From Paramacrobiotus metropolitanus (Eukaryota; Tardigrada; Eutardigrada; Parachela; Macrobiotidae), in assembly GCF_019649055.1 (NCBI RefSeq), contig NW_026570551.1, positions 1 through 46,894 of the forward strand: a DNA stretch of 46,894 nt, written 5' to 3'. Position numbers and translations under genes: made by a program. Below are positions 10,461-38,371 of this stretch, piece after piece. A model generated the notes under the pieces. It saw only the letters and a list, made by a program, of their open reading frames with translations, ran no database searches and was not told the DNA's origin. Numbering within the stretch: the stretch's first letter is position 1; each line of letters begins with the position of its first letter.

Positions 10461-10811
10461 TGGCGCTGCTAACAGCGCGCGCTTTTTTACTTGTACATAT
10501 GTACATATATGTAATTAGTACGGTAATTAAGTTTTTTATTTGTACAGTGTGTTTTTTATTCGTTCAGTATGTTTTTTAATTTATTTTCATATTTTTTAAC
10601 TCGTTAATTAGAAAAAATGAAAATTAACTATTGTTTCCACTAATTAATTACGTAAGTTAATGAAATTAATGTAAATTACTGTACTCTATTGTTTAATTTA
10701 ATTAAAAGTAATTAAAAAGTTAATTATAGGCAGGTGGTACTGTATATACAGGCAGGTGGTACTGTACGGACCCCTGGGGTGTTCCTGGCAGTGGATGTCT
10801 GTGTATTCTAC
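10461..10811. other. AT-rich spacer
   Basis: Mostly AT-rich sequence with repeated TTAATTA-like words and a short direct duplication of CAGGTGGTACTGTA at about 10,730-10,765. No gene seen apart from the read-through of the serpin frame, which stops at 10,698. Confidence 0.4.
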
Positions 10812-15985: not shown

Positions 15986-16339
15986 TGTGAGACCGGGATC
16001 ACTAGCGTTCACGTCAGTGGCGCTAGGCGCTACGCCTTTGGATTATGGCCTGTGTTGTGTCTCGCTTCTGATTGGCTTGTGTTTTGTTAGTGGGCGCGGC
16101 ATAGCACGTGCTGCACAGCGTTGCACGCTGTTGAATGGGCTCCACGCTTTACGATCGAGCTGCGCCGATCAGTGTTGATTTTCTGTTGTCGGAATTTTCA
16201 ATATTATTAAAAGTCAGCTATTAGCGGTGCGACGTTTCGCGATTCCGCGTAGTTCGCTATACTTATCGCATAGCTCACTCCACGGGATCTATTCCGTTTA
16301 GGTCTCCGTATCTGGATCACAGTTGGATCTAGCATTAGA
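15986..16339 (+). repeat. 5' LTR (354 bp)
   Basis: Begins TGTGAGACCG and ends AGCATTAGA. I compared it base by base with 33303-33656 and saw no difference. The ends are TG...GA rather than the usual TG...CA, but the flanking 4-bp duplication and the adjacent primer-binding site fix the borders. It contains no AGGTCA motif, unlike the interior. Confidence 0.95.
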
Positions 16340-16350
16340 TGGTAGCAGAG
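16340..16350 (+). promoter_or_regulatory. Primer-binding site, initiator tRNA-Met type
   Basis: TGGTAGCAGAG begins at the first base after the LTR. It is complementary to the 3' end (CTCTGCTACCA) of animal initiator tRNA-Met, giving 11 consecutive pairs. This marks the start of minus-strand DNA synthesis and supports the LTR border. Confidence 0.85.
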
Positions 16351-16512
16351 CCGACAGCGGTTCTCTGAATTTGATTTGATTTGTGTCAGGCAAAGTTGGC
16401 CTGTTATCTGATGTGAAACCCGACCAGTAAGGCACAGGTCTGTACCACAGCAAAGCGCAACACCACAAGCGGTGCAAGTTCCTCATCGGACGTGGATTTC
16501 CAGCCTTGTTTT

Positions 16513-16664
16513 CGGTGCAGCGTCTTCAGCGAAGACCTGTACTGTTGCAGGGACTGTGCAAGAGTTCAAGAGAGCAGTCGCCAGTGTTCCTCGGTGTAGA
16601 GTCTTCAGCGAAGACCTACACTGGTGTCACTGGTACTCGGCAAGGATTCAGCGAATCCTAAGCC
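16513..16664 (+). ncRNA. Three leader stem-loops sharing a UUC-AGC-GAA tip
   Basis: Hairpin 1 (16513-16544) has the inner stem GTCTTC-AGC-GAAGAC, a one-base bulge and the outer stem GTGCAG/CTGTAC, closed by C-G and G-U pairs. Hairpin 2 (16592-16623) is the same shape with outer stem GTGTAG/CTACAC. The fourth outer pair is C-G in one and U-A in the other. Hairpin 3 (16639-16664) is AGGATTC-AGC-GAATCCT inside GGC/GCC. All three have the same AGC loop closed by UUC/GAA. Position in the leader fits a dimerisation or packaging signal; that role is inference. A further small hairpin, CGGT-AAA-ACCG, lies at 16810-16820 and resembles the core of the 3' stem-loop array. Confidence 0.65.
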
Positions 16665-17236
16665 GTGGGGCAGAAGCGCCGAAACGCCGAAAGGGGCGTA
16701 CGGAAAAGACGGATCAGACTCCACCAAACTGGTGTAGAGCGTACCACTACTGTTGCTACGGCAGTCAGCCGGCACAGTAACCTATCGAAAGCGTGCGGCA
16801 CCACCGTTACGGTAAAACCGGCGGCAGCGCGGGAACGGATAGTGGAAGAAGAATCTGGATCATTTGGATCATTTCCCCGTGGAACGCGGAACGGACGGAC
16901 GGTTAACAGGTAGAAAACCGTTAATAATTACGAGATTGGCTAGTTGGTAAAATTGGCAATTTTTATTGGTCCGTACTGAGCTGAGTGTAAAAGTAGGCGG
17001 AGTTTTGCACGCGGCGCGCATGTCTGGCCGTTGACCGTGACGTCAGGCAGATAAGAATTCTTAACGGATTAACGTGATTGGTCAGTTATCTGAGCTGTGA
17101 TTGGTCGACATTTGAACTGAATATTTTGAGCTAGCGGACCAATCAGAACGAAGTAAACAACCCGAATGGGGATTTTCCGTTGAACTCAAGTCGTAATCGG
17201 AAATTTGATTTAAGATGAGATAACTGAGCGGGAAAG

Positions 17237-17783
17237 TGACCTTTAGACTTGAATTGAGTTGAGAAGTGACCTTTTGAGTTGAGACGAAGGAAAAGTGACC
17301 TTTGATCGAATTGAGCTTAAAAGTGACCTTTAACTTGAATTGAGCGGGAAAGCGACCTTTTAACAGAAATTGAGCTGGAAAGTGACCTTTCGAGTTGAGT
17401 TGAGTCAGAAAGTGACCTTTGAGACCAGAAGTTGACTTTTGACTTTGAAAAGTGACCTTTACCAAAAAGTTGGAATTGACCAAATTGACCAATTTAAGTG
17501 ACCTTTATGATCTGAAAACTGACGAACGGTGACCTTTATCGAAGCGAAATTGAACTGAATAGTGGTACAACGATATCAGCAGCTGTAGGATTTCATTCAC
17601 TAACGTGTTTGGAACCGTAAAAGCCGTTTCGAAGTTTTGTCCGAAAGTGACCTTTTAGGGCAAATCTCTCGAACTTTTTACCGAAAAAGTGACCTTTATA
17701 AGGGACTTAGTTGAAATTTTTTCAATCGAAAAGTGACCTTTACAAAGGACTTAGAAAGAATTTCGAAGTACGAAGTGACCTTT
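17237..17783 (+). promoter_or_regulatory. Leader cluster of 13 TGACCTTT octamers
   Basis: Exact TGACCTTT starts at 17237, 17277, 17296, 17324, 17383, 17413, 17453, 17499, 17530, 17648, 17690, 17734 and 17776; CGACCTTT at 17353 is a variant. All are in the same orientation and all are preceded by G. Between them the DNA is only loosely repetitive (GAATTGAG-like words). The complement AAAGGTCA is the known NR4A monomer element (NBRE). The cluster sits just upstream of the gag start. Confidence 0.8.
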
Positions 17784-17858
17784 AGGACAACTGAATAAAC
17801 CATACAATAACGTGTGTGTGAGAACAATTGGCAGGAGCGTCCAAGTTATCCGATCAAC

Positions 17859-20800
17859 ATGGACAAAGAGGAACCGACATCCACTAGCAGTCAGGGAAGC
17901 AGGAGCTCCCGGGGATCACAACAAGGCACAGTTGATCCTTATAAGAAGGAATACAAGTCGCTCGCGCGTCCAGTCGGACATGATAGACAGACCCGAGCGG
18001 CTGTGACCTTTGCAAGAAAGGACAGCAAAGGCAGTGATAACACATACCAAGTGGCGCTTGGAGCTATACAGAACGAAGAGAGCTCCAGCGGTGACGGAAA
18101 GGAAACTCCCGCGTCTACGGCGGGAGGCAATCCGATGAACCAGATAAAGGTCACCGGGGAGGAGAAGTCCACAGAAATAGGAGTGGAAGCAATGGGGGCA
18201 TTACAGTTGGATGCTACCATTAGCGGAACGGACGAGCAGGATAAAAATGCAAACCTGACTCAATCGAAAATGGAAAAGACAAAGGTCACCGGAGAGGAAC
18301 TAGCTGAACTGGGATTGGATGACCTTTCACTGAATGATAAGACCGCGGACGATGACCTTTTTGCAACTCCAATGGTCTCAGATGAATCCAACGAGTCATA
18401 CTTCACAGATGATGACGCAACGATGAATATGTCTTTTCAAACTGCAATGAAAGAGGCTGACCGAGCAGAAGAAGTGACCCCGTTTAAGGATATCCCCGAA
18501 CATTTAATTGACCGGACACAGAATGGAAAGGTCATCAATGTACGACCACAGTCACCAAACAGTCCCACGTTAACTCTTAGGAGACGCGTAAGGGAGCTGG
18601 AAAATGAACTTGATACCACTGAACGTCATGCGGACAAGCGGAAACAGGAGTATCGAGATAGATTATCGACACTCGAAACTCGCTTATTCGAATTGGAACA
18701 GCTACAGGGTGACCTCCAGAGCTCTGCAGACGGTTGGAAAGTCAAATATGAGCGACAAAAGGAAATTGCAGAAGAGTACCTAAAGATGGCAGATGACAGA
18801 GAAATGGAAGGTCATCTCGCTGTCAGTGACCTTAATGAGAGCATGTCAGAGGAATCAGCAGAAAGGTCACGGCACTTGGCGGAATTGAAGGATGAGTGTG
18901 ACCAGTTGCGTCAAAAGGTCACTGAAGCTGAAACTAAACGGGACGAATACGCGACCAAATTCGCAGAGGTCACACAACGGTTAACGACATTGGCAACGGA
19001 GACGTTCAAACTAAGGAATGACCTGAAGCTACGGGAGGAGGCTGTCAGCACTCTGCAACTAGAATCGAAAGGTCATCAGGAACGGGCGGACGAAGCTGAG
19101 AAGTTGCGCAATGATGCAATCAAAGCGATGCGAGAGGCAATAGACATCACAGCTACTGAAGGAGAACGCCTGAAAGAAGAAATCAAAAAGGTCAACCAGG
19201 AGAACGAAAAGGTCACAGAAGACATTGAAAAGGTCACTAAGGAAGGACTCAAATGGCAGAAGGAAGCACGGCGACTGGACACGATGGTCACAACATTGGA
19301 GTTGAAGGACAAAGAGTGGCAACAACAGGTCGCTCAAAAGAGTCAGGAAATTGCAAAGTTGAACACTGACCTCGTCGAGATGACCACCACAGCATTGGTA
19401 AAAGATGATGAGTTGATCGCAATCAAGGATCAGCTGAGATCAGCCGCTGGGCAGTATCAGCAACTCGAAAAGAAACGAGTGAGCTGGTCGAGCACATCAA
19501 AAAAAATGGAACGGGAAAATGAAAAGGTCACCCAGCAGGAGTCTTTTAAACTGCAGGAACACTTACGAAAGGTCAACCTGGAAAATTCTGATCTAAAGAG
19601 GAAAGAGAAGAACTTCAACTGAGAACTAAACGATTGGAAGATGAGAACAAGGCGCTCCAGACGTCTAACAAGCACAAAGATGAACAACTCCTACAATACG
19701 GAGTTAAAACGGCAACAGTGGAGTCCCCTCCGCCCAGTTACAGCAAGGCGCATGAAACGGGCACGGGCAAAAGCTTCCACTTTGAGATGCCGCTACGAAC
19801 CGGCACCGGTAAGGGGAGTGTTAAAAATGAAAGAGATGGCGAAAAGGTCAAAGACGACAAAGAGCCACCTTCGGAAAGTTACCCGCATATGAGTCGAGGT
19901 GATCCTTCACAATTTCCCCCGCACATTGAAACGAATGTGTTTATCGACGAAGGACGACGAGACAGACCCCCCAGCCGGCAGGAACGTCCAAGGAAGTCTC
20001 GTTATGGGAAGGCGCAACGAACTCACAATGATGATGAGAGTAGCGAAGAAGACGAGGACCAGGGAGCAGCCAACACAGCGGTACAATTAACAAAGGCACT
20101 CAATTCGATGGCTCGGAAAACACCCCTCATGACCTTTGACGGCAGCCGCGACACTGTGAGTGGATGGACACGGTTGGTAAAAGAAACCCAAAGGACGTAC
20201 CAGCTGACGGACGACCAAATTATGATTGAGATTGCTAGTGCGGTGAAAGGTCCTGCTAAAACTTGGTTCGAAGGCGAAAAGACATCGCAGCAGAAGACGG
20301 AATTGAATATTCAATAACTGAATGGATGGAGAAATTCAAAGATGAATATGGCGATAGAGACGAAGAAGTCTTAGGCTTACGTGAGGCCTATGCAAGGAAA
20401 TTCGAACTCGGGAAAGAATCGCTTGATCAGTATTACCAGGCGATGATGCGATTTAAAGCAAAACGGATCATCACAGAGAAACAAGCTGTGGGTTTCCTAA
20501 TTGAAGGATGTAGAGGGGATAACGAACTCTACAAGGCTTTGCGCATACAGAAGTGCAAGACGCCAACAGACGTGAAAGACTTCTTCCGACATTGGGCCAC
20601 TGGCGAGGAGAAATACAAGGCGCCAAAAGGTCAACGCACCCAGGATTACGTGACGATCCGCCAAGGTCAAGTTGAAAACGTGCCGCAACAGAGAATGGCA
20701 GCTGCGCCAGCCCAGCAGCCGGTTGAGTACCGCGTGGAGACTCCGGTCAGAGAGGTCACCGAAAAGGTGACCTTTATCGACAGTCAGACGGGGCAACCGA

Positions 20801-21612
20801 TAACATACGCGATGGTGGCGGCGATACAGGCAGCAGCTCAAGTGAGACCAGTAGCCCAGAATGTGGCTCCACAGAATGTGGCCCCACCTGCACCGCAGAA
20901 TATGGTCCCCATGAATGTCGGGTTACCACAACAAGGAGGGGGTAACGGTAACTTTGGCGGAAATGGATATGGGAATGGAAACTGGAATGGAGGCCAAGGA
21001 AACTTTCAGAATCAAGGTCAAGGTCAACGCAACTTTCAGCCAAATAGAGGAAACCAGAACTACCAGCAGAATCAAGGGTCACGGACAGAATTCAAGTTCC
21101 AAATGATTGACGGATGGGTGGCGAACAACGTTCAGATGTGCCAATACTGTATGTATGGCAACCACCAGACCCAGGGATGCAAATTCGCCAACACACCACC
21201 GGAACAGAACCCAAACCTGTTTGCCTTCAACGAGTGGCAACGACTGCGCGGGTTAGGTGGTTGGCAACAAGCGGTGGCAAATGGATATGACCTGATAACA
21301 CAATGGTACCAGCATAAGTCCACCTTCCCCAACCAACAAGGCAACGGAGGCGGCCAAGGTGGCGGTTACGGCCGTGGTGGCTACGGCCGCGGCGGCTTCA
21401 GAGGAAGAAACAGAGGCTTCGGCCGCGGAAACTTCAGAGGAGGCCAGAACAATGGCGGCGGCCAAGGAAACTACCAACAGGGTGGCGGCCAATATAATAA
21501 CGGTGGCGGACAGAATCCTAACCCGGCAAATAATATCGGACAACAACAAGCAAATGTGCAAGGCGTGCAACAAGGTGGGGCGCCGGTTCAGGGAAACGGG
21601 CAAGATCAGTAG
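17859..21612 (+). CDS. gag: Gag polyprotein with long coiled coil, capsid, CCHC knuckle and RGG tail
   Basis: The structural protein that would package the element RNA. The start chosen is the ATG at 17859, in good context. The first ~230 codons are charged and probably disordered. Codons from about 18,560 to 19,650 are a continuous heptad-rich coiled coil, much longer than usual for Ty3 Gag. A capsid-type region follows (about 20,130-20,640). Then comes a canonical zinc knuckle, CQYCMYGNHQTQGC (21139-21180; CX2CX4HX4C), and a Gly/Arg/Asn-rich tail with RGG repeats (21,350-21,600). The reading frame changes by -1 near 19,600 and again within 20,260-20,317. Neither place has a canonical slippery heptamer, and the protein character continues unchanged across both, so they look like indels or sequence errors. 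The stop TAG at 21610-21612 lies 12 nt after a true frameshift signal. Confidence 0.85.
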
Positions 21613-21654
21613 GCACCGGTGAGCCTACTGATCGACCCGACCCTAAACCACCGG
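21591..21654 (+). promoter_or_regulatory. Programmed -1 ribosomal frameshift signal at gag/pro
   Basis: The heptamer G GGA AAC (21591-21597) is in phase with gag, followed by a 6-nt spacer. Then comes a perfect 11-bp stem, GATCAGTAGGC (21604-21614) with its complement at 21623-21633, and an 8-nt loop. The loop bases CCGGTG (21616-21621) are complementary to CACCGG at 21649-21654, so an H-type pseudoknot with a 6-bp second stem is possible. The gag stop codon lies inside stem 1. The next frame, opened by a -1 shift, is free of stops from 21498 and encodes the protease ORF. All elements match well-studied retroviral -1 sites. Confidence 0.85.
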
Positions 21655-24600
21655 ATAAAAGGGAAAGGTCACCACTGCAGAATGGTACTGCAGTGAATGT
21701 GACCACTGCAACGGCTATATGGATGCCGTCAGCGAAAAAGCAAAGTGGACCGGCTATATGGATGCCGCAACCACAAGAAACGGCTAGATGGATGCCGCCA
21801 CAGCAAAGAGAAACGGCTATATGGATGCCGTCATCACAAAAAGGAAATGGAACGGTTATAGGGATACCGTCACAGAATCAAAGGTCACCGCAGAATGGTA
21901 CTGCGAGTGGAAGCGCGCAACGGGACCAAAGGTCACCGCAGAATGGTACTGCGAGTGGAAATTGTCGTGACGGTAGCGCGACACTGCGAACAGCGCAGCA
22001 AAATGAAAGGTCACCGTATTGTAGCGAAGAAGTGTTAGCGCAACGACGCGCACAACGAAATGCAAAGATTCGCCAGGCGCTACTGAATCAAAGGCCACCA
22101 CCGCAGAATGATACTGCAAGTGGAAACGGATGTCAAAAGACAAAATGTAATTGCGAACTAGTAGAAGTGGATGAGGAGCAACATGCGAAATTTCGCAAAT
22201 ATCTGGCAGAGAAGGGCCCACGTTGCAGCTGCCACGTAACGGGGACAGGATATACGACAACAGACATCCGACCCAGATTTTGCAGTTGCTTGGAAGAAGA
22301 AAGGTCACCTTCCGTAGGAAAAGTCCAAGTGAAAGGTCAAGGTGCAAGTGCGAACGCTAAAAGTCACGGCGACAGCGTCGTGTTGAAAGGTCAAGAAACA
22401 GACTTGACACTGCGAACAGCGCAGCAAAAGAATAAGGAAATGGCACAAAACTCCGACGACTCACTTGTGGACGCAGTAACACTACAACAGAAGGAGAAGT
22501 GGCAAAAAGTGGCCTACAGATCGAACGGCAATCACGGGATGTGGGTACCCGTGACACCAAAAGCGAAACAGAAAGCGCGAATGTCACAAGAGGATTACTG
22601 GGATATGCAACAGTTGCGAACGCAATGTGAAAGAAAGCGACTGGAAGAGTTGGTTACCGGGAAACCAGCGCAAGGGTCATCGAACCCAGTCCCAGCATTC
22701 AACGTAGAGGAATATAAGAAGACATGCGCTGACTGGAATTATTCACGTAATGCCCCGCCACGGGATAAACCGCCGAATTATGGAGAAAAAGTCCCCATAC
22801 AAAAGCTGACAAACGGCGGATTTGTCATGAAGCGCAACGAAAGGTCACAGGACTTAGCGCAGAATGAACAAAAAGGACGGTCAAACGAGATGGCGCAAAT
22901 GCAACAGAGTGGCGCAGTTGAAAGGTCACGGGACTTATCGGAGGCACTGCAAAAGGATGCCAATGACAAGTCACCAGCCCGAACAGACGGGATGTCCTCG
23001 CAAATTGATCAGACGAAAACGAACAATGAAGTGTCCGCGAAAGTGATCGAATGGATGACCGAAAAGGGATATGATATGGTCACATATGAAAGGTCACCAG
23101 ATGAGATGAAAGATAGTGAAGCAGAGGAATTGAAGCAAGCTGACCAAATAACAAGTGAAGTCATTGAGAAGCTGCGAGATAAGCGAAATGAAAACCGTAA
23201 AGAGGAACTGATCCATCAAACGATAAATGAAGTGACTAAAGGTCACATGAAGAGCACAAAAGCAAATGAGCAAGTGCAGAACGTGGAAAAGGTCATCGGT
23301 GATAAAATGGATACAGAGAAGCAAACAAATAAAGAAAAGCCGCGAAAATATTACGACGTTCGGACTAACGTTCCACATAGGATTGATAAGCTGAGCGAGA
23401 TACTGAAAGGTCATAGCACTCCAGCAAAAGGACAAGTGCTTTCCGATATGGATCCGGGACCAGTATCGCTCATCCCTGTGAAATGTAAGATTCACACATT
23501 GAAGATTCAAAACGGAAAATTGCCTAAAAGAATTGAAGCATACACTCACGAAGTGAAAGTGGGAGACATAAAGGTCAACGCAATGTTGGACACTGGCGCT
23601 GAGACGTCGCTGATCAGCAAACCGTTTTGCGAGAAGAATGGACTCCATATGCTCCCACTACCACCAGACAGACTGGTGAGGATAAATGGAATTAGCGGAA
23701 CGTCAGGATTCATGGTGACGCACTACTGTGTAGCGCCAGTGACCTTACGAAAGAAGACAAGCGAACATTCCTTCTACGTCCGACCGAAGTGTGACGACGT
23801 ACAGGTGCTATTGGGATTCGACTTCTTAGAGAAGAAGTTCGTACTGATGGATAATGAAGGCGAAGAAGAGAAAGAAGATGACCCCAAACCAGTCGCCAAA
23901 GTACAAGTCGGAAAGGTCACCGAATTTGTAAAACAGACGGGAAATGCTCAAATGGTTAATAAAACGCTAATCCCAGTACCAGAGGCACCGGGAAACGAAA
24001 AGAAAAAGATGACGCGAAAAGAATTGTCACCATTTGAGCAGTTGCAAATGATTCAGCAGGAGATCGAAAAGACATTAAATCGGACCTTGCTGGCACAGAA
24101 GGGAAGAGAAAAAGTCATCCCAGTACCAGAGGCACCGGGAATGACAAAAGTGCAGCAGGAAGAAATTATCCCAGTACCAGAGGCACTGGAAACGAAAAAT
24201 GAAAATGAAAAGACTGCTACCGAAAGGTCACCAACGAGTGAAGAGATAATTGCCACACAGAAAGAAGCGGCAGTTGCAGCGAAACAATCTCTTGTGCCAG
24301 ACATGCAGTGGGCAAAGCCTATCCCAGTACCAGAGGCACTGGAAATAAAGACGGCTAAAGTGGGGAAAGATAAAAAGAGTGAAAGGTTACGAGTTTTGAA
24401 ACGAATAGTTGAAGAGGAACAGATGTTTACAGGCGAAATCCGCGACAAGGCACTCGAACAATTGAAAGGTCACCGAACAGAAAAAGAACCAGAGGTCATT
24501 GAAATATCCTCGGAGGATAAAAGCGTGACTCCAATCGAATGTGAGGAAGATACCACAGTACAGGAACAGATTAAACCTGAAGCGAGTCAAAGGATATTAA

Positions 24601-26225
24601 CTCCAGAAGAACGAGCCGGGAGTTGTCACCACGGTTACTTTGAGGATCCGTGCAGAGTGCAACCACAATGGGAATGCGCGGAGTGTAGTGAAAATGCCTC
24701 TCAAGATGACCCTTCAGAATGGCCAAGATGTAATGCCGCATTAGCAGACATTAAAGGTCACGCCCAAAAGAAAGCGAAAAGCATCATGCGGACAAACGAA
24801 ATGTGGAAACCACACATCGAACGGTATCATTGGAATAGATATCGAACGTGGTTGTCATGTGTGGAAAGTTTCATAATTGGAAGAGGCAGATGGCTGAACC
24901 ATTGGTTGCAACGTGTGGAGAAAGGAATCCAAGATCCTCTCGATCCGGTAGCGACAGAAAGGAGATTTGAACGAGAGATAGAAGAAATGACCGAGGAAGG
25001 AGAAATGTGGGAAGAAGCGAGAGTTGACCTTTTCTGGGACTTCCGCGTGAACCATATGTATAAAGGTGAAGGGAGAACGATCATTTTCCCAGCAGGACTC
25101 GGTACACCTGTCTACGAATCACTTGAAGTGTACTACAATGCGTTAAAAGAAGGAAACGAAAAAGTATTCGAGCAATATTGGAAGAAATTCGAGGAAGAAA
25201 TCCCCAAATTTGACGTAAAAGAAATGCGAGAACTACAGGTAACTCGGAAAAGAAGGTTACCGGGTTTGATGCAAAAGAAAAAGGTGACCTTTGCACCAGA
25301 TCCAGACGGAGTGGACTACCCAGAACGAGGTGGTGATACGTGGTGCATGTACGAAACGATTCCGAATGATGAATGGGTCACCGAAGAACTGATGGCAAAC
25401 TGCATTTTCGTTGGTCCTAAACGACCTAAAGGTTACGAAACAGTTCAACAGGATGAAGCCGATAAAGGGACTCCCAAAGAAGCAGAGAAAGAGGAACCAA
25501 TTAAAGAGATAGCCGAAGGACAATCGAATGAAACAGAAGAAAGTTCAAAGTCAGCTTTCGATATTGCGCAGATGTTAACGGATAGAGGTGAAATGTGGAA
25601 AAGGTTCAAAGAGGAAGTTGAAAGGATATCGAACGAACAACAAAACCCAGTAACTGAGGCAAAAAACGGGGAAAGGTCACTCGATAACGGTGAGGAATGT
25701 CCGCCGGTCGAGTTGACCGAAAAGCCATTAACGAGCCGCGAAGAAATAAATGAACTGGAAAAGTCAAAATCGGACAAAGAAAGGTCAAACTCCGATCAAT
25801 CAGAAAAGTCACCAACGAGAATTCGGGTAGCAAGGAGTCACCCAAGAGTCGCCGCACGAAACGGACGAAAAGCAAAAGAAGGGGACAAACCCCTGCTCAA
25901 AAATTCGAAAGCGAAAAAACTTAGCGATTCGCCGGAAAACGGAAGTGACCTTTCATCGGAAGACGAGGGAGTTGATGAACGCCCACTTGAAAAGGCTGAC
26001 AAAGGTCAAGCCACTGCACAGGAATATGAGAGCAGTAATTCGGATTCAGAGTGGACGAGTTCAAGTGACAATTCAACAACTTCGGAAGATTCAGGTGTAA
26101 GTGACCTTTCGGAGCAAGAGGATTTAATGGACTTGGATGAGGATGACGAAGTTGATGAGGAAAAAGAAAAGGATATTAAAGTCAGAAGATTGAAAGTGGA
26201 AAAGCTAGAATGTCGAAAGACGTGA
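21597..26225 (+). CDS. pro: Pro ORF: aspartic protease plus very long extra region
   Basis: Entered by the -1 shift from gag; the frame runs about 1,540 codons with no ATG required. The first ~600 codons are low complexity, with several WMP repeats (about 21,720-21,870) and QNGTASG repeats. A retropepsin-like protease follows, with active-site motif DTGA (23589-23600) and the downstream LLGFDFL flap-side motif (about 23,808). Next come four IPVPEA repeats (about 23,970-24,340). A conserved-looking folded region lies at about 24,610-25,430, with C/H clusters (CHHGYFEDPC, CAEC) and many tryptophans; I cannot assign it to a family. The last ~250 codons are acidic and disordered. A span of roughly 850 codons between protease and RT is unusual for Ty3/gypsy. 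Octamer copies read here as KVT, RS or KGH according to frame. Confidence 0.8.
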   Translation, partial: RARSVGTGEPTDRPDPKPPDKRERSPLQNGTAVNVTTATAIWMPSAKKQSGPAIWMPQPQETARWMPPQQRETAIWMPSSQKGNGTVIGIPSQNQRSPQNGTASGSAQRDQRSPQNGTASGNCRDGSATLRTAQQNERSPYCSEEVLAQRRAQRNAKIRQALLNQRPPPQNDTASGNGCQKTKCNCELVEVDEEQHAKFRKYLAEKGPRCSCHVTGTGYTTTDIRPRFCSCLEEERSPSVGKVQVKGQGASANAKSHGDSVVLKGQETDLTLRTAQQKNKEMAQNSDDSLVDAVTLQQKEKWQKVAYRSNGNHGMWVPVTPKAKQKARMSQEDYWDMQQLRTQCERKRLEELVTGKPAQGSSNPVPAFNVEEYKKTCADWNYSRNAPPRDKPPNYGEKVPIQKLTNGGFVMKRNERSQDLAQNEQKGRSNEMAQMQQSGAVERSRDLSEALQKDANDKSPARTDGMSSQIDQTKTNNEVSAKVIEWMTEKGYDMVTYERSPDEMKDSEAEELKQADQITSEVIEKLRDKRNENRKEELIHQTINEVTKGHMKSTKANEQVQNVEKVIGDKMDTEKQTNKEKPRKYYDVRTNVPHRIDKLSEILKGHSTPAKGQVLSDMDPGPVSLIPVKCKIHTLKIQNGKLPKRIEAYTHEVKVGDIKVNAMLDTGAETSLISKPFCEKNGLHMLPLPPDRLVRINGISGTSGFMVTHYCVAPVTLRKKTSEHSFYVRPKCDDVQVLLGFDFLEKKFVLMDNEGEEEKEDDPKPVAKVQVGKVTEFVKQTGNAQMVNKTLIPVPEAPGNEKKKMTRKELSPFEQLQMIQQEIEKTLNRTLLAQKGREKVIPVPEAPGMTKVQQEEIIPVPEALETKNENEKTATERSPTSEEIIATQKEAAVAAKQSLVPDMQWAKPIPVPEALEIKTAKVGKDKKSERLRVLKRIVEEEQMFTGEIRDKALEQLKGHRTEKEPEVIEISSEDKSVTPIECEEDTTVQEQIKPEASQRILTPEERAGSCHHGYFEDPCRVQPQWECAECSENASQDDPSEWPRCNAALADIKGHAQKKAKSIMRTNEMWKPHIERYHWNRYRTWLSCVESFIIGRGRWLNHWLQRVEKGIQDPLDPVATERRFEREIEEMTEEGEMWEEARVDLFWDFRVNHMYKGEGRTIIFPAGLGTPVYESLEVYYNALKEGNEKVFEQYWKKFEEEIPKFDVKEMRELQVTRKRRLPGLMQKKKVTFAPDPDGVDYPERGGDTWCMYETIPNDEWVTEELMANCIFVGPKRPKGYETVQQDEADKGTPKEAEKEEPIKEIAEGQSNETEESSKSAFDIAQMLTDRGEMWKRFKEEVERISNEQQNPVTEAKNGERSLDNGEECPPVELTEKPLTSREEINELEKSKSDKERSNSDQSEKSPTRIRVARSHPRVAARNGRKAKEGDKPLLKNSKAKKLSDSPENGSDLSSEDEGVDERPLEKADKGQATAQEYESSNSDSEWTSSSDNSTTSEDSGVSDLSEQEDLMDLDEDDEVDEEKEKDIKVRRLKVEKLECRKT

Positions 26226-28741
26226 TCAAAGTCTACAGCGACCAACGAATCAAGTTGAAACCGTCAAACTGCACACGTGTAAAGGTCAAGATGGGAAAAT
26301 ATGCACCGGCACAAAACAAGTTGATGTTTACACCGGTCCCACAAGTGGAGACTGAAGTGCAACCGTTGGCAGGAGTGACGGACCACAGGGGAAAATACTT
26401 CGAAATCGTTATCGCAAATCACAGTAGCAAATACCGGATCGTGAAGAAAAATCAGCTACTCGGCTACGTTGAGCCGTATGAGCATATGGAAAATGTAAAG
26501 GTCAACGCAGGGACAGTAAAGAACGTACTCGAAGACCCTGAGGTGGACGATACAACAAAAGCCGAGTTGAAAAAGATAATTGAAAACTTGAAATTGGGAC
26601 CTGACCTTACCCAAGAGCAGAAAAACGACGTGTACAACGCGTTTTGGGAATTCTGGAAAGTCTTACCCACATCAAGGAAACCGTATGGAGATGTGAAAGG
26701 GGTCACCCACGTAATTGATACGGGAGATGCGAAACCAGTAAAATGTAACCCGGCCAGAACGAGTTGGACAGGCCGCGAGTTTATAACAAAGCATATCGAA
26801 GAGATGTTGGCACAAGATGTAATTGAACCGTCAGACGCCGAGTGGAGTTTCCCAGTCGTATTGGCAGTAAAGAAAAATGGCGACGGAACAATGGGAACAA
26901 GATTTTGCGTCAATTACATCATGCTTAATAAGCTAACGAGAAAGAATAATTACCCGTTACCAAATCCGGATGAGTTGCTCGACGCGTGCGCAGGCAACAA
27001 ATATTACGGAAAAATGGACTTACAAAGTGGATTCTGGCAGATCCCAATGGATCCAGCGTCAATCAACAAGACGACCTTTGTAACACAAGATGGAATGTAC
27101 CGATTTAAAAGAATGCCATTTGGCGTATGCAACGGACCAGCAACGTTTCAATTGTGTATGGATAAAGTACTTTCGAAAGCGAAAAGAAAGGGTTGCGTTT
27201 TCGGGTATATCGACGACGTGATCTTCGCCGGAAAAACTTGGGAAATTTTCATGCAGAATCTGCGAAATGTTTTAATGAGTCTGGTGGAAGCGGGATTCAC
27301 GATTAAGCCAACGAAATGCGAATTTGGAATGAGACAAATGGGATTTCTGGGTCATATACTCAGCGAGGACGGAATTCGTATGGACCCGGAAAAGGTCACC
27401 GCGGTCTCAGAGTTCAAACGGCCTCAAACAGAAAGGCAGTTAAGGTCATTCCTCGGACTGGCGAACTATTACCGCAAGTTCATAATGGGATATGCACAAA
27501 AGACTTGTCATTTATATGAACTGCTGAGACAAGATAAGCACGTGAAGAAGGACTGGACAGCAGCACACGAAGAAGAGTTCAACAGCTTGAAACAGCTGTT
27601 ATGTGAAGGTCCAGTATTGGCAAAGTTTGACCCCGCGAAACCGACTGTCATCGAATGCGACGCGAGTAAAGAAGGAATCGGAGCGGTGCTGTCACAAGAT
27701 GGACATCCGATCGCGTACGCCAGTCGTGTCTTACATGGGGCCGAGAAAAACTACGGCGTAACAGAATGGGAATGTCTGGCAGTAGTGTTCGCTGTTAGGA
27801 AATTCAAGCCGTATATCGATTACGCAGAATTCACCGTAAGGACGGATCATCAGGCACTGACCAACCTTTTAAGGTCAGAAACGAACAAAGTCGGAATGAA
27901 CCCGCGCTTGACAAGATGGGCAATGGCCTTGCAAGGTCACCAGTTCAAAATTGAATACAAACCCGGAAAGTACTGCGATAATGCGGACGCATTATCGAGA
28001 GCACCAATTGAAGGCCCGACGTGTCAAGAAGAGGAATTCGATGAGATTCCAAACTTCGAGGATTACAAGAAGGAGTTTGATACGAAGGAACCGGCAATTG
28101 AAGTGGGACAGCTGTTCCTGCAGATGGTGGAACAGAGGGAGAAACGACTAAAGGTCACTTCAGCTACGGCGAACGAGTCGGCTGAAAACGAAGCAAAAGT
28201 GAACCGAGTGAGAAGCTGGTTGCCCGCCGTTAGTGACTTAAAGGTCACCGGACTTGACGCGGAATCTCAAATGCAGAATGGAAAGGTCACGGGACTTGAT
28301 GATAGAGCGGAGAATAGAGATGACCTTTGGGAAACGGACAAAGTTACACAGGCGTTGAACGAGTGTCCAATTAAGTTGCTGAGATTCCCAAAACAGACGA
28401 AAAAGAGGTACAAACCGTTACCGCGCTGCAAGGTCATCAGAGACTGGAACGAACTAAGTACGGCCACAGTTCGTATCGTCAACCTGCAAGGCGACGAAGA
28501 AGAAGAGGATGACTCAAATCTGCAATTACGGAATAAACAGTTAAAAGATCCCCATCTGGCAATGATAATAGATGAATTGGAACATCTGCCAGACGCGGAA
28601 ACAAGATCAAAATTCGAAGTGCACTACCAGTTATGGAACGGCATATTATACCGAGTCAAGGATAAAAATGGGAGGCTCGAAAGGTCATATGTTGGTACCG
28701 CTGTCAATGCGAAGAGCGATAATCCACGCATTGCACGATGA
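26210..28741 (+). CDS. pol: Reverse transcriptase and RNase H
   Basis: The frame lies -1 relative to the protease ORF and overlaps it by 46 nt (26180-26225), with an ATG at 26210. RT has the expected order of motifs: FCVNYIMLNKL, KMDLQSGFWQI, FKRMPFGVCNGPATFQ, YIDD catalytic site (27206-27217), and LGHILSEDGI. The RNase H domain follows, with CDASKEGIGAVL, TDHQAL and NADALSR. After RNase H about 200 codons form a charged linker that carries six or more octamer copies (28,150-28,330), looking like inserted motif units. No slippery heptamer is visible in the overlap, so re-initiation at the ATG, a second non-canonical shift or a sequence error are possible. Assignment to Ty3/gypsy RT is firm. 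Confidence 0.9.
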   Translation: MSKDVIKVYSDQRIKLKPSNCTRVKVKMGKYAPAQNKLMFTPVPQVETEVQPLAGVTDHRGKYFEIVIANHSSKYRIVKKNQLLGYVEPYEHMENVKVNAGTVKNVLEDPEVDDTTKAELKKIIENLKLGPDLTQEQKNDVYNAFWEFWKVLPTSRKPYGDVKGVTHVIDTGDAKPVKCNPARTSWTGREFITKHIEEMLAQDVIEPSDAEWSFPVVLAVKKNGDGTMGTRFCVNYIMLNKLTRKNNYPLPNPDELLDACAGNKYYGKMDLQSGFWQIPMDPASINKTTFVTQDGMYRFKRMPFGVCNGPATFQLCMDKVLSKAKRKGCVFGYIDDVIFAGKTWEIFMQNLRNVLMSLVEAGFTIKPTKCEFGMRQMGFLGHILSEDGIRMDPEKVTAVSEFKRPQTERQLRSFLGLANYYRKFIMGYAQKTCHLYELLRQDKHVKKDWTAAHEEEFNSLKQLLCEGPVLAKFDPAKPTVIECDASKEGIGAVLSQDGHPIAYASRVLHGAEKNYGVTEWECLAVVFAVRKFKPYIDYAEFTVRTDHQALTNLLRSETNKVGMNPRLTRWAMALQGHQFKIEYKPGKYCDNADALSRAPIEGPTCQEEEFDEIPNFEDYKKEFDTKEPAIEVGQLFLQMVEQREKRLKVTSATANESAENEAKVNRVRSWLPAVSDLKVTGLDAESQMQNGKVTGLDDRAENRDDLWETDKVTQALNECPIKLLRFPKQTKKRYKPLPRCKVIRDWNELSTATVRIVNLQGDEEEEDDSNLQLRNKQLKDPHLAMIIDELEHLPDAETRSKFEVHYQLWNGILYRVKDKNGRLERSYVGTAVNAKSDNPRIAR

Positions 28742-30506
28742 GAAGGCAGCAGGACATTTGGGATTTGAGAAGACATTGACAGCGACTAAGACTCCGATAT
28801 TACTGGGACAGGATGAGTACAGATGTGAAGAATTACATACTCGCCTGTCAAGGATGTCAGTTCCGTAAAACACCGAGGAAATGTCCACCTGGAAAATTGC
28901 AAGAGATTAAAGTGGGACATCCGTTCTTCCGAGTATATGCTGACTTGAAAGGACCTTTGTTACCGACGAAGAAACGTGGATACAAGTACATAGCGGTATT
29001 TATCGACCAACTGACGAAATACGTGATCGCGGTACCGATGAAAACAGCAACGGCTAAAGAATTCGCTAAAGTGTTCGTGAAGCACGTGATATTGGTACAC
29101 GGAGCACCGCACATCCTGCATACGGATCGCGGACGACACTTTACAGCTGAAGTATTGGCAAAGGTCACCAATGTGTTTAAAATTAAACACACATTTGGAA
29201 CGGCGTATCACCCAGAAGGTCAAGGCCAAGTGGAGAGACAGATGCAGACGATCGCTGATGGCTTGGCGCAATACCTAAAAGCGGGAAATGAGCGAAAGTT
29301 TAACAAGTATCTCCCATATGTTATTTCGGCGATGAACAGAGTCGTGCACGCCACAACGGGATATTCAGCATACTATATGCTACACGGCAGAGAAATGACA
29401 ATGCCGGAAGATGTGGTTACAAAAACGAATATACCCGATGATTACGGAACTCCAGACGAATGGGTGGAGACCATGAAAAAGAACTTGACCTTTGCCGAAG
29501 AAGTGGCGAGATGTAACATCAAAGACGCATATGAGAAAATGCGGAAATTTATAATAAGAAGAAATCGGAGCCGAATTTCAAAGTGGGCGATTTGGTACTT
29601 ATACGACTTCCAAAAGATACTAAACAGGGGAAGAAAGAAAACCAGTCGGATTTCAAGTCGAAGTACGATAAAGTGTGGAAAATTCTTAGCTTCCCGCGAA
29701 CAAACGAAGTGGAGGTCATCGAGCAGAACCCGAAGAAGGAAGCGGATCTAAAAGTGGTTTCCATCGATCGGTTAAAGCCGTGGCATCCGCCATTACCCGA
29801 CGAGAAAGATTCGCAACGGACGTTGAACGAAAAAGAAATGGAAGAAGCCGAGCTTGCTTCGAAAAATGGTACTAATCAATTTTTCGAACCACCTCTGCTA
29901 CCTGAAAGGGAAAAAGTGGATAAGGGCGCAGAGCATACTCCTCAAAAAGAACCTTTTTTCGAACCACCTCCGCTACCTGAAATGGAAAAAGAAAACAAAT
30001 CTACAAAGAAAAGAGGAAGAAAGAAGAAAGAGGATAAGGATTTCGAAACAGCAGTCACAATCAAGTTGAACGCGGAGGCTGGTAATTTGGCAGAAAGGTC
30101 ACTGGAAAAAGATACCGAAACGAGCTCCAAAGTACCAGAGCGTACCTCCAAAAAGGACTTGCAACAATCCTTTTTCGAACCACGCACTGCTACCGCAGAT
30201 AAAGATGACCTTTTGAAACAGCGAACGGACGCTGAGATATCAGAGCGTGACCCAAATTTTTTCGAACCACGCACTGCTACCGGCGATGATGACCTCATTC
30301 AAAAGAGAAAAGAGGAAATAGAGGCGGTCAAATCAAAAGCTGAACAATTGGGCCGTGATATAGCGAAAGCAATTAACGAGCGGAAGGTTAAACAGAAGAA
30401 AAAGAAACCAACTCCTACGGACTTATTAACTCAAAAAGGCGAACCTGAGGACGCAGCCGAGAAGGAACTTCTTGATCGGATAACTAAAGGACGCGAAAAC
30501 AAATAA
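28690..30506 (+). CDS. pol: Integrase with GPY/F-like tail and FFEP repeats, frame interrupted
   Basis: Integrase domains are read in three frames. The His pair of the HHCC zinc finger (HALHDEKAAGH, about 28,726) is in one frame. The Cys pair (ACQGC, about 28,840) and the DDE core are in the next: ADLKGP, then HTDRG (about 29,118), then GQVERQ (about 29,225). The C-terminal part with VGDLVLIRLPK (about 29,583) and the RLKPWHP motif is in a third. Frame changes fall near 28,690, 28,800 and 29,560. The carboxy-terminal tail has four FFEP repeats (FFEPP or FFEPR, 29,880-30,280) and is very charged. It ends at TAA 30504-30506. The breaks suggest a damaged copy or single-base sequence errors. Confidence 0.8.
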
Positions 30507-32060
30507 CCCACATAAACATGATTAACGGGATTAATGGCACTAAAAATAGAAGTTCGGAAGGTGTAAAGGTCATACGAAGTTCATCAGCCAATCGTTATCG
30601 TTTTCGCTGATAGTGGAAAGGTCAACAAACTCTGACGAAAAGTCATCAAAAATGTTAAAGGTCAAAAGGTCATTGAAACGGACACCAGAAAGGTCATCAT
30701 GGATGAAAAGTCAACAGGAAGGTCCTCCAGTCGAAAGGTCATCAGACTCCGGACTGAACCATACGAGAGAAGCAAAAGGTTATCGAAAGGTCAAGATACT
30801 CCGACCGAAATTCAAATAGAACAACGAAAAGGTCACGGAAGTTCGGAATCTTCAGAAATTGTCGTCCAGTCGAAAGGTCATCGGACTCTGACTGAAATAC
30901 AAAATGAAGTGCAAACGTCGATCGAAGTAAAAGCGGAAGAAATTAAAGGTCAATCGTATTGGTAAGAGACTCCGGCAGAAATCCAAATGGAACAGCCAAA
31001 AGGTCACGAAAGATCTGGATCAGCAAAAATGAAAGGTCATCAGACGAGGTTGTGAAGCCGGATCACAGAAAACCATAAGGTGTCAAGTGAAAGGTCAAGC
31101 GACAGACCGACTCAAGGTCACGGGACTTTCACAGAAAAAGACGAACAGCCTAAAGGTCAACAGACGTCTGGAACCGTGGAGAAGGAAGCGCAATCTAAAG
31201 GTCAAGAGAGTTCCGTGTCTACGGAACAACCGAAAGGTCACGAGACTTTGAAAGAGAAGGTCGTGCTCCCCATGGAAAGAGCCGCAGTAGATGCAGAAGC
31301 GGACTCCGCGCGACAGGTGGTTCAAAAAATCGTTGTTTACACTGTTGAAAGAGGCTTCAGCGACGGAGAAACCGAAAGGTCAAAAGATTCCATTGACGAC
31401 CGAGAAAACCAAAAGGTCACAAGACTTAACCGCAAAAGAGAAGACTGACGAACCGGAATCGACTCAGTCTTCGTCCGGATCATTGGCGAGATAGACAATC
31501 GATGAGAAACAGAGTCAGGAAACCGAACCAACGGACTCGGCATTCCCGCAGAAACCGGATACGTGCGGTACACCAGCGAAATGAAAAATGCTGCCAGAGC
31601 ACAACAAAATGCGTGGAGAATGGTCATAACTGATGCGACATTGGATAATATATGTCGAACAAATGGAACGACATGACCTTTCGAGTTACAAGGCTGTGAA
31701 CTTAGAACTGGAAGAACTTTGTACTCGAATAATGGCGAACAGATTAGAAACAGTTGAATGTTAATTAGTTATCGCTGGAGAACTGGTGAAAACGTCAAAA
31801 GCGTGAAAGGTCACCGTGTTAGAATGAGACGAATGAACTGAAAAATGGCACGGGAAAGGTCATCACGTTAAAGTAACGAAAGGTCATCGGAATAAGAATT
31901 GAATGCGAAAGACTCAGTTCAGTACGGTATAGCCTAACTAGGCGCGATGGTAAAGTATAAAGGTCACGTAACATATTATTGAAACCGCGTTCGTGTACTT
32001 GTTGTTTTCAGCGTTTATAGCACAGAATCGAAGGGATAAAGAAATCATGTGGAATATCTA
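30507..32060 (+). promoter_or_regulatory. Octamer-dense 3' region
   Basis: Between 30,541 and 31,440 there are about 19 AGGTCA hexamers, nearly all forward and mostly AAAGGTCA, about one per 45 bp. Two form a direct repeat with 2-nt spacing at 30659-30672. Short open frames are present (for example 31080-31448) but are lysine- and serine-rich products of the repeated motif, without recognisable domains. I treat the region as non-coding. It lies where an envelope gene would be in a retrovirus-like element; none is seen. Confidence 0.6.
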
Positions 32061-32511
32061 TTGGGGTTGAAATTGATTCGGTCTATAAAGCCGGCCCCAA
32101 GGGAGTAATTACGGCAGTTAGCCGGCTCTCCTCCTTAAGCGATTCAGTGTTATAAATTGACAAGAGAAACTACGGTAATCAAGCCGGATCTCTTGAATAC
32201 GAAACGGGGCCACAAGCGGCGAAAAAGAGAAAGACAACAGGTGGAATATTGATGAGGTTAACTTAATGCGGCAACCAGCCGGCCTCATTAGAGTTGTTAC
32301 GGTAAACTGTGCCGGCACTCTTTTTGAGCGATTCAGTGTCAAAAGCGGAACGAGAAAAACTACGGTAATCGAGCCGGATTTCTCGTATTAACATGGGCCA
32401 CAGGCGGCGAACAAGAGTAAAAGATTAGAGGTGGAAATTTCATGGGGTAAATTCAATGCGGTAACTAGCCGGCCCCATCAGAGATGCTACGGTAAACTTG
32501 CCGGCACTCTG
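32061..32511 (+). ncRNA. Array of eight related stem-loops (CGGY...GCCG core)
   Basis: Stem-loops at 32061-32100, 32101-32130, 32161-32195, 32251-32289, 32290-32321, 32351-32385, 32442-32478 and 32479-32511. Each has an inner stem CGGT or CGGC paired with GCCG around a 5-7 nt A-rich loop, and an outer stem of 5-7 bp. They repeat with a 190-bp period in the order A-B-C. Outer stems differ but stay paired: CAAGAGA/TCTCTTG becomes CGAGAAA/TTTCTCG, and ATGAGG/CCTCAT becomes ATGGGG/CCCCAT, with TTGGGG/CCCCAA in the first B copy. The spacer GCGATTCAGTGT is also repeated. Function unknown; location before the 3' LTR suggests RNA stability, export, packaging or strand transfer. Confidence 0.75.
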
Positions 32512-32626
32512 GCCGCTCGAGGCATATTGAAGTTGGATGTGCGGCGGAAAGGTCAAACTGCAAATTTTACCAGGGAGGCAAGCAAAGAAGTGCTTGAAGC
32601 CGCAGAAAATCGGCTAAGTTCCCCCA

Positions 32627-33036
32627 TGACCTTTAACAGAAGTTTTGACGAGTGGGATGACCTTTGGGATCATCAATTGCCCAACAGAGTCACCGTACTG
32701 GAATTTAAGTCGCATGACCTTTGGGACCATTAACCCAAAATGAGTCGCACGTCTCAACGAATCATCTCAACAAAGGATGACCTTTACCAGGGAGGAAGCG
32801 AACTACGCTTGTCTATGTGACGTCCCTCCATGACCTTTATGGATCTCACTTTGAAGTCGTACAATTGATACGCACCTTATTCCAAAGATTGAAGCAGTAT
32901 TCCTAAGTCGTACTTGATACGCACCTGATTCTCAAGCGGATTGTGATGAAAAGTCGCACTACGGATGCGCAGAATTGCTCAACAGAGCGGAATGGGCCAA
33001 AAGTGCGGAAAACGGTGGACAGGACCTGTGACCTTT
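32627..33036 (+). promoter_or_regulatory. 3' cluster of six TGACCTTT octamers
   Basis: TGACCTTT starts at 32627, 32658, 32715, 32778, 32831 and 33029. All are in the same orientation as the leader cluster and opposite to most copies in the body. Five of the six are preceded by AT or GA rather than a leader-like AG context. Short direct repeats (AAGTCGTAC, TGATACGCACCT) lie between 32,853 and 32,935. Confidence 0.75.
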
Positions 33037-33302
33037 ACGAGTCAGAAATGGAGGATCCTAGTCTACTTTTGATTAATACTTTTGTTGATCTTTTAACTGT
33101 TGATCTGTTGTGTATTAGATTTGATATGGAATAGTATTTTGATACAGATCTCTTTATTCACATTGTGCATTTGGAATTATGTGATAAATGGAATAAGAGA
33201 ATTTGATGTTTTCGAGCACGCACAGACACTGGCGACCGTCGTCTTCTCGTGGATTCGGGAGTGTGTCCAGCCTCACAGGAGCTCGGCATCCCCCCAGAGG
33301 CA

Positions 33303-33656
33303 TGTGAGACCGGGATCACTAGCGTTCACGTCAGTGGCGCTAGGCGCTACGCCTTTGGATTATGGCCTGTGTTGTGTCTCGCTTCTGATTGGCTTGTGTT
33401 TTGTTAGTGGGCGCGGCATAGCACGTGCTGCACAGCGTTGCACGCTGTTGAATGGGCTCCACGCTTTACGATCGAGCTGCGCCGATCAGTGTTGATTTTC
33501 TGTTGTCGGAATTTTCAATATTATTAAAAGTCAGCTATTAGCGGTGCGACGTTTCGCGATTCCGCGTAGTTCGCTATACTTATCGCATAGCTCACTCCAC
33601 GGGATCTATTCCGTTTAGGTCTCCGTATCTGGATCACAGTTGGATCTAGCATTAGA
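33303..33656 (+). repeat. 3' LTR (354 bp)
   Basis: Same length and, as far as I can see, same sequence as the 5' LTR. It is followed by GTGC (33657-33660), the right copy of the target duplication. Confidence 0.95.
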
Positions 33657-38172: not shown

Positions 38173-38371
38173 TAATAGCCAAAATACGAAGTGGCTATTT
38201 TGCCGCAGTGTTTGCGGCTAAATAGCCGTTTGGCTATTTTGCCGCACTAGGGTGGGCGAAATAGCTTGCTGGCTATTTTACCGCACACTGCGTTAAAATA
38301 GCTGCTCAGCTATTTTGCCGCACTGTGGTTGTCAAAATAGTCAGTTGGCTGTTTTGCCACACCATTATTGC
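38173..38371. repeat. Tandem hairpin repeat, about 39-bp unit, five copies
   Basis: GGCTATTTTGCCGCA-like segments start at 38193, 38232, 38271, 38308 and 38347. Each is preceded by a complementary AAAATAGC-like arm, so every unit folds into a hairpin of 7-9 bp. The arms vary but stay paired (AATAGCC/GGCTATT, AAAATAGC/GCTATTTT, and AAAATAGTC/GGCTGTTTT using G-U pairs). It could also be a palindromic satellite. Confidence 0.7.

What the first reader, a model, noticed from the sequence alone, without database searches (positions are those of the whole stretch)
17237..33036. Retrotransposon saturated with AAAGGTCA, the NR4A nuclear-receptor (NBRE) octamer
By hand I count about 80 forward AGGTCA and about 40 TGACCT hexamers over 15.8 kb, roughly 15 times the chance level of about 8; most extend to AAAGGTCA. 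The flanking 29 kb has about 16, close to chance. AAAGGTCA is the established monomer site of NR4A (NGFI-B/DHR38) receptors and a near match for NR5A/FTZ-F1 and ERR sites. A mobile element acting as a massive receptor-binding platform, for inducible transcription, receptor titration or chromatin opening, is to my knowledge undescribed. RNA-level recognition of AAAGGUCA by Gag or a host factor is an alternative.
Basis: partly seen in the sequence, partly recalled or inferred. Interest (0 to 1): 0.95.

Follow-up and report, generated by a model that had tools for sequence, protein, structure and literature searches.

The report
Retrotransposon saturated with one 8-letter motif
A large tardigrade jumping gene carries about a hundred exact copies of one 8-letter DNA word, spread through genes and non-coding parts alike and preserved by selection; the word is the known landing site of an inducible nuclear receptor that this animal also encodes.

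Summary
The window holds a 17.7-kb Ty3/gypsy-order LTR retrotransposon (15986-33656) of the tardigrade Paramacrobiotus metropolitanus. It has 98 exact AAAGGTCA octamers (66 +, 32 -); dinucleotide shuffles give about 1. The base after the octamer is never G. Sites use all codon frames that avoid a stop and are scarcest in the RT-RNase H core. Across 10 related copies the octamer is a base-sharp island of conservation: third codon positions inside it are 95% identical, against 73% elsewhere. Both orientations are equally conserved. A subfamily with 36-50% Gag identity keeps the saturation; two sister families (RT 50-59% identical) have none in 24.5 kb, mostly coding. This is selection on DNA sequence, not repeats, mutation bias or protein constraint, and its strand symmetry points to double-stranded DNA recognition. 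The octamer equals the NR4A monomer site (NBRE), and the host genome has NR4A zinc-finger and A-box exons. I favour a body-wide platform for a sequence-specific protein, NR4A first, that keeps integrated copies active. Binding is untested. A sister family modestly enriched for another word, AGGTCGG, leaves a co-evolving, VANC-like binder open.

The parts
15986..16339 (+). 5' LTR, 354 bp, no AAAGGTCA
   Evidence: 100% identical to 33303-33656; GTGC on both outer sides
16340..16350 (+). likely primer binding site, TGGTAGCAGAG, initiator tRNA-Met-like
   Evidence: sequence right after the 5' LTR; match to animal initiator tRNA-Met is recalled, not searched
17237..17783 (-). 5' untranslated array: 13 AAAGGTCA sites, all in reverse orientation (TGACCTTT), 22.5 per kb over 17237-17813, partly a ~30-bp tandem repeat
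17814..21612 (+). Gag-side ORFs (coiled-coil-like part, then a part with a CX2CX4HX4C knuckle and a Gly/Asn/Gln-rich tail); 18 sites
   Evidence: ORFs; no Pfam family over its cut-off; site count; coiled-coil and knuckle are read by eye; frame broken between ORFs
21693..26225 (+). long ORF with aspartyl protease domain; 24 sites
   Evidence: PF13650 E 4e-08, PF13975 E 4.2e-08
26210..28741 (+). reverse transcriptase and RNase H ORF; only 1 site in the 1,066-bp RT-RH core
   Evidence: PF00078 E 8e-26, PF17917 E 5.7e-34
28813..29751 (+). integrase ORF; 2 sites
   Evidence: PF00665 E 1.1e-12; site list
29583..30506 (+). overlapping tail ORF, Lys-rich, repeated FFEP peptides; 2 sites
   Evidence: no Pfam family over its cut-off
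30565..32555 (+). 3' non-coding forward cluster: 23 forward and 1 reverse AAAGGTCA; 11.3 per kb over 30507-32550
   Evidence: site list, density
32627..33036 (-). 3' non-coding reverse cluster: 6 TGACCTTT
33303..33656 (+). 3' LTR, no AAAGGTCA

Best explanation
The thing is a young, multicopy LTR retrotransposon of Ty3/gypsy domain order in Paramacrobiotus metropolitanus, whose internal DNA has been shaped by selection into a field of about 100 monomeric double-stranded DNA binding sites, AAAGGTCA followed by A, C or T. Shown here: saturation, purifying selection on the nucleotide word, strand symmetry, restriction to one clade, and NR4A exons in the host. Inferred: a sequence-specific protein sits along the integrated copy. 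The leading candidate is the host NR4A receptor (NGFI-B/DHR38 type), an inducible activator that binds AAAGGTCA as a monomer. Dense binding, strongest in the 5' array and the 3' non-coding cluster but present also in genes, would keep the copy's chromatin open and its LTR transcription high or inducible (in stress or in the germ line), and so raise its chance to transpose. Titration of the receptor could follow as a side effect, since a large share of all such octamers in this genome (rough estimate 40-65%) appears to lie in these elements.
For: 98 sites against about 1 expected. Motif positions 94.5-96.1% identical across 10 relatives against about 82% (75-88%) in flanks, with sharp edges. 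Third codon positions 1387 of 1457 (95.2%) in motifs against 26924 of 36905 (73.0%) elsewhere, and higher in each of the 10 relatives. Codon frames: forward 9/13/20, reverse 0/5/7, where the empty phase would be a TGA stop. Density falls from 22.5 per kb (5' array) to 0.9 per kb (RT-RH core). Both orientations equally conserved, with the same next-base rule: G 0 of 98 in the element and 12 of 988 in 24 related loci. Two copies of a divergent subfamily have 87 and 88 sites, with 33 of 45 alignable window sites intact against 11% background. Sister families 0 in 24.5 kb. Host NR4A: second-finger exon best matches NGFI-B, 1cit, E 3.1e-21; the 6 PDB sequences matched by the A-box exon are all NR4A. 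NBRE = AAAGGTCA (PMC4777543, passage). No dimer-type spacing. Genome-wide 42,562 AAAGGTCA against 15,522 for the reversed word.
Against: No binding or expression data. Sites look stricter than I would expect of one receptor: all 24 single-mismatch words together occur 45 times against 98 exact, though 42 unmasked ones exceed the roughly 17 expected. Forward and reverse sites are segregated by region; base composition explains this in most coding DNA and in the 3' forward cluster, but not fully in the 5' array, 0:13 against an expected ratio of 0.8 (tandem duplication may explain it). A sister family has another enriched word, AGGTCGG, whose 3' extension is not a known receptor feature (recalled). 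The host has many other receptor genes (63 zf-C4 matches). No site lies in the LTR, where the promoter should be. Relatives were picked through a word of the 5' array, and the sister loci do not reach a 5' untranslated region, where sites would be thickest.
Confidence: 0.48

Rival explanations
1. The binder is encoded by the element itself, or co-evolves with it, as VANC proteins do in Arabidopsis VANDAL transposons: a protein made by the element recognises the word along all copies and removes silencing. The match to NBRE would be chance.
For: Saturation is limited to one clade; a sister family has a different but overlapping word, AGGTCGG, in all frames, conserved 8 of 12 against 25% background, GGTCGG 15 of 23 against 29%; VANC motifs also differ between related transposons and act by density (PMC5735166, passages). 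The element has about 600 aa of Gag-side N-terminal sequence and a tail ORF of unknown function.
Against: No DNA-binding domain over a Pfam cut-off in the ORFs scanned apart from integrase; one sub-threshold match to a DNA-binding coiled-coil family, E 0.0087. Gag is only 36-50% identical between subfamilies that share the word exactly. VANC motifs lie in non-coding tandem repeats; here 54 of 98 sites are in ORFs. The sister-family signal is modest: 16 in 7.1 kb of one locus but 3 in the adjacent 3.2 kb, and other frequent 6-mers of that locus reach 60% conservation, median 44% of 19.
Confidence: 0.2
2. Another host protein binds the word: a different nuclear receptor (COUP-TF, HNF4, RXR, NR5 or ERR type) or a tardigrade-specific factor, for example in chromatin organisation or meiosis.
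For: Several such receptor domains are in the genome; my naming of the non-NR4A ones is by eye from the sequences.
Against: No dimer-type spacing; C at the first position is rare, 52 against 988 with A, against NR5A/ERR sites; no AGGTC upstream of the octamer, against DR1 sites.
Confidence: 0.2
3. The signal works in RNA: AAAGGUCA is a Gag or host-factor site, or it pairs with UGACCUUU in the 5' and 3' regions of the same transcript and folds or packages the genomic RNA.
For: Orientation changes by region: all reverse in the 5' array, forward in most of the body, reverse before the 3' LTR; many-to-many pairing would also freeze the word.
Against: Reverse sites are as conserved as forward ones and obey the same next-base rule; pairing does not explain the missing G; wobble-compatible variants are not clearly enriched; base composition predicts forward bias in coding DNA, expected 4 to 17:1 in three coding stretches and 1.5:1 in the integrase-tail stretch, where 2:2 are seen.
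Confidence: 0.09
4. Not functional: repeat expansion, biased mutation or assembly artefact.
For: A tandem array exists in the 5' region.
Against: Site flanks are largely unrelated to each other outside the 5' array; third-position conservation; saturation in 12 other copies at other places of the genome; none in sister-family loci and 1 in the flanks.
Confidence: 0.02

Closest known systems
VANC / VANDAL21 sequence-specific anti-silencing system of Arabidopsis (PMC5735166, PMC10398659; passages seen)
   Same: A transposon family carries many copies of one short word that is rare in other transposons; density matters; related families use different words.
   Different: DNA transposon; word in non-coding tandem repeats; binder encoded by the element. 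Here a retrotransposon, coding DNA included, mostly dispersed sites, no known element-encoded binder.
gypsy insulator of Drosophila, 12 Su(Hw) sites (PMC5825117, one passage; its place in the 5' untranslated region and the site length are recalled)
   Same: Element of the same order with a cluster of sites for a host zinc-finger protein downstream of the 5' LTR.
   Different: 12 sites in one cluster; here 98 exact 8-mers through the internal DNA.
NR4A monomer response element, NBRE (PMC4777543, passages)
   Same: Identical octamer AAAGGTCA, monomer arrangement; NR4A exons present in the host.
   Different: Known from host enhancers; I know of no mobile element with about 100 (searches found none). 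Binding here is not tested.
Ty3/gypsy (Metaviridae) LTR retrotransposons
   Same: Protease, RT, RNase H, integrase in that order, LTRs, short target duplication.
   Different: 17.7 kb is long; very long Gag-side and 3' non-coding regions; the second layer of nucleotide code.

Membership tests
Ty3/gypsy LTR retrotransposon | direct LTRs, target duplication, PBS | tested here: met
   354-bp identical LTRs; GTGC on both sides and TGG-starting PBS-like sequence
Ty3/gypsy LTR retrotransposon | domain order protease-RT-RNase H-integrase | tested here: met
   Pfam domains in that order; listed homologs carry RT, RNase H and mostly integrase domains
NR4A response elements (NBRE) | exact AAAGGTCA as a monomer site | tested here: met
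   98 exact sites; no dimer-type spacing
NR4A response elements (NBRE) | NR4A receptor gene present in the organism | tested here: met
   zinc-finger and A-box exons on contig C45; splicing and expression not checked
NR4A response elements (NBRE) | receptor binds and acts there | not testable with these tools
   needs EMSA, ChIP, knock-down
VANC-type anti-silencing system | many copies of one short word, specific to one transposon family | tested here: met
VANC-type anti-silencing system | element encodes the binder | tested here: inconclusive
   no such domain over a Pfam cut-off; unknown Gag-side and tail sequence remains
VANC-type anti-silencing system | word mainly in non-coding tandem repeats | tested here: not met
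   54 of 98 sites are in ORFs
NR5A/ERR sites | C at the first position (CAAGGTCA; recalled) | tested here: not met
   C 52 against A 988 in related loci; 6 in the window element
RNA signal | constraint on one strand only | tested here: not met
   reverse 217 of 263, forward 420 of 501 conserved

The most novel reading that the evidence does not exclude
A retrotransposon has written a second code over its internal DNA, coding regions included: about 100 host NR4A landing sites per copy, so that integrated copies act as receptor-loaded, anti-silenced and stress-inducible chromatin, while the family as a whole owns a large share of the host's NR4A sites and buffers the receptor itself. Sister families have moved to other words, so the code evolves by an arms race with the host.
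Probability: 0.3. Interest if true: 0.95.

Novelty: new variant of a known kind. Interest (0 to 1): 0.87.

Why it matters
It is a clean case of a dense nucleotide code laid over protein-coding DNA in an animal mobile element and held by selection at single-base resolution. If the binder is NR4A, it links an immediate-early stress receptor to transposon activity in an animal famous for stress tolerance, and it shows how a transposon can enlist, and perhaps drain, a host transcription factor. It would also give an animal counterpart to VANC anti-silencing that can be tested at once: one octamer, many closely related copies, and sister families without the octamer as built-in controls.

Tried and rejected
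Tandem duplication as the source of the sites: rejected except for part of the 5' array. Protein constraint as the cause: rejected by frame use and third positions. Genome-wide mutation bias: rejected, as flanks have 1 and sister-family loci none. Helical or nucleosomal periodicity: mean resultant length 0.139 at 10.5 bp and 0.14 at 147 bp against 0.096 expected; not convincing. Spacing in the body is random, CV 1.06. Receptor dimer spacings: same-orientation gaps of 19-28 bp recur across related loci (tandem array and shared ancestry); opposite-orientation pairs within 30 bp are few. Element-encoded DNA-binding domain: none over Pfam cut-offs, only sub-threshold matches. Sister family L054: no saturating word found; best 6-mer AGGGTC 14 against 3.9; its protein P0001 has no more word-compatible peptides than 118 other LTR proteins (1.24 against a mean of 1.26 per kb; window 3.75). 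Relatives in other species by the protease ORF: 2 proteins, both P. metropolitanus. Rows left out of the conservation counts: loci L001-L008 of 3 kb (17, 3, 23, 21, 19, 17, 8 and 17 octamers), of which L003-L006 overlap one another and one of the ten relatives; among the ten, copy C1:3863 is truncated and aligns over only 10.0 kb. Literature: AAAGGTCA with retrotransposon, 2 papers, unrelated by title; tardigrade with retrotransposon and LTR, 25 papers, 15 listed, none on this by title; NR4A with retrotransposon, binding sites and transposable element, 21 papers, 12 listed, none on such an element by title and abstract start; AAAGGTCAC with NR4A, 0; LTR retrotransposon with nuclear receptor, response element and ecdysone, 0; anti-silencing with nuclear receptor and others, 5, none on point by title. 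The tardigrade transposon-curation paper PMC11071193 does not name Paramacrobiotus (term search of the main text). The library lacks most subscription journals.
Full report
What was checked. AAAGGTCA occurs 66 times forward and 32 times reverse there, and once in the other 31.1 kb. In the whole element the 98 octamers compare with a mean of 1.09 and a maximum of 3 in 100 dinucleotide shuffles. The best unrelated octamer has z 8.0 against 27.5.

What the element is. Two identical 354-bp LTRs bound an element from 15986 to 33656, with GTGC directly outside both ends and a TGG-starting primer-site-like sequence. Protease, reverse transcriptase, RNase H and integrase domains follow in Ty3/gypsy order. 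The window copy's reading frame is interrupted in several places; related copies show open frames of up to about 3,100 codons. The genome (169.8 Mb, 533 contigs) is Paramacrobiotus metropolitanus: LOC129592756 of that species is 96% identical to the RT ORF over 19% of it, and contig C1 has exactly the length of the contig that holds another protein of that species. The search with the RT ORF returned 55 matching rows at 85-100% identity, the window included, with 54 of 1,976 candidates scored, so the true number is probably higher.

The word. The octamer is strict: all 24 single-mismatch words together occur 45 times; with sites masked, 42 are counted against about 17 expected. The next base in the element is C 52, T 24, A 22, G 0. 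In 24 related loci it is C 582, T 218, A 176, G 12 of 988. The base before shows only a mild preference for G (373 of 988). Outside the 5' array the sites have largely unrelated flanks. In ORFs (54 of 98) they use all codon frames that avoid a stop. They are thickest in the 5' array (22.5 per kb) and the 3' forward cluster (11.3 per kb), thinnest in the RT-RH core (1 in 1,066 bp). Opposite-orientation pairs within 30 bp are few and no receptor-dimer spacing recurs; same-orientation gaps of 19-28 bp do recur in related loci. Forward bias follows from base composition in the Gag, protease and RT stretches and the 3' forward cluster; the all-reverse 5' array is not fully explained that way.

Selection. 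Ten relatives were fetched through a longer word of the 5' array, so they are not a random sample of the family; one of them is truncated. They align to the window at 79-93% identity. Window sites are intact in 637 of 764 aligned cases, 68-90% per relative, while background 8-mers are intact in 19-63%. The eight positions are 94.5-96.1% identical, the following base 88.9%, and other neighbours 75-88%. Third codon positions inside sites are 95.2% identical against 73.0% outside, and higher in each of the 10 relatives and for each of the four bases taken alone. Non-coding sites: 98.4% against 87.9%. Forward and reverse sites are equally conserved, 420 of 501 and 217 of 263. Two copies of a divergent subfamily, with Gag 36-50%, protease ORF mostly 36-55% and RT 68-82% identical, still have 87 and 88 sites in 18 and 19 kb, and 33 of 45 alignable window sites are intact against an 11% background.

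Where it stops. Sister families (RT 50-59% identical) were located through protein P0001. In 10 kb of one and 14.5 kb of the other (two copies) there is not one AAAGGTCA. These loci cover mainly Gag-to-tail coding DNA, not the 5' untranslated region; the window's coding DNA outside the RT-RH core has 2-6 per kb. The saturation is therefore specific to one clade in the same host. One sister family shows a different word, AGGTCGG: 16 against 1.9 expected in 7.1 kb, 9 against 0.9 in a second copy, conserved 8 of 12 against 25%; GGTCGG 15 of 23 against 29%. Against this, the adjacent 3.2 kb holds only 3, and among 19 frequent 6-mers of that locus two unrelated ones also reach 60% conservation, median 44%. 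It is a hint, not a second saturation.

Genome scale. AAAGGTCA occurs 42,562 times, the reversed word 15,522 times. Only 4,042 of the octamers are followed by G, but this form too exceeds its own reversed control, 2,427, so the reversed word underrates the background. Taking either control, roughly 40-65% of the octamers in the genome would belong to this clade; this is a rough estimate, and at least one array with 91-bp steps carries the AAAGGTCAG form.

The candidate binder. AAAGGTCA is the NBRE, the monomer site of NR4A receptors (PMC4777543, passage). The genome encodes such a receptor: three exons on C45 give the two zinc fingers and the A-box stretch (exon joins not checked); the second-finger exon best matches NGFI-B (1cit), and the six PDB sequences matched by the A-box exon are all NR4A. 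A preference for C after the octamer agrees with NR4A matrices as I recall them; I found no paper to cite for it.

Reading. Shown: saturation, selection on the nucleotide word, strand symmetry, restriction to one clade, NR4A exons. Inferred: a double-stranded DNA-binding protein, most likely NR4A, sits along integrated copies and keeps them active. The main doubt is the identity of the binder: the exact NBRE match favours NR4A, while the sister family's overlapping but different word favours a co-evolving binder as in VANC (PMC5735166, passages). Binding experiments will settle it.

Noticed in passing
L055:1-8000, L056 and L057 (sister family, contigs C68 and C37): A different word, AGGTCGG (core GGTCGG), is modestly enriched and conserved in all codon frames of a sister retrotransposon family that lacks AAAGGTCA in the stretches seen.
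   Followed up: partly
window 1401-6588: Minus-strand ORFs including an organellar/viral type B DNA polymerase fragment (PF03175), perhaps a Maverick/Polinton remnant (recalled); no AAAGGTCA there.
   Followed up: no
window 10698-11321: Serpin ORF fragment on the minus strand (PF00079 E 7e-27).
   Followed up: no
window 23944-24345: A short peptide repeat (IPVPEA) in the protease ORF, four copies of a 51-nt unit at uneven spacing; further IWMP repeats near 21693-21870 and FFEP repeats in the tail ORF.
   Followed up: no
window 32138-32510: Two 190-bp tandem units in the 3' non-coding region, free of AAAGGTCA.
   Followed up: no
G000 contig C1:2537724-2538368: AAAGGTCAG at about 91-bp steps, apparently a satellite array.
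   Followed up: no
window 41180-41290 and 38192-38362: 17-bp and 39-bp tandem repeats in the right flank.
   Followed up: no
L032:3057-3782: This integrase stretch is 95% identical to the window's although Gag is 36-50% identical, a mosaic pattern that may reflect recombination between subfamilies.
   Followed up: no
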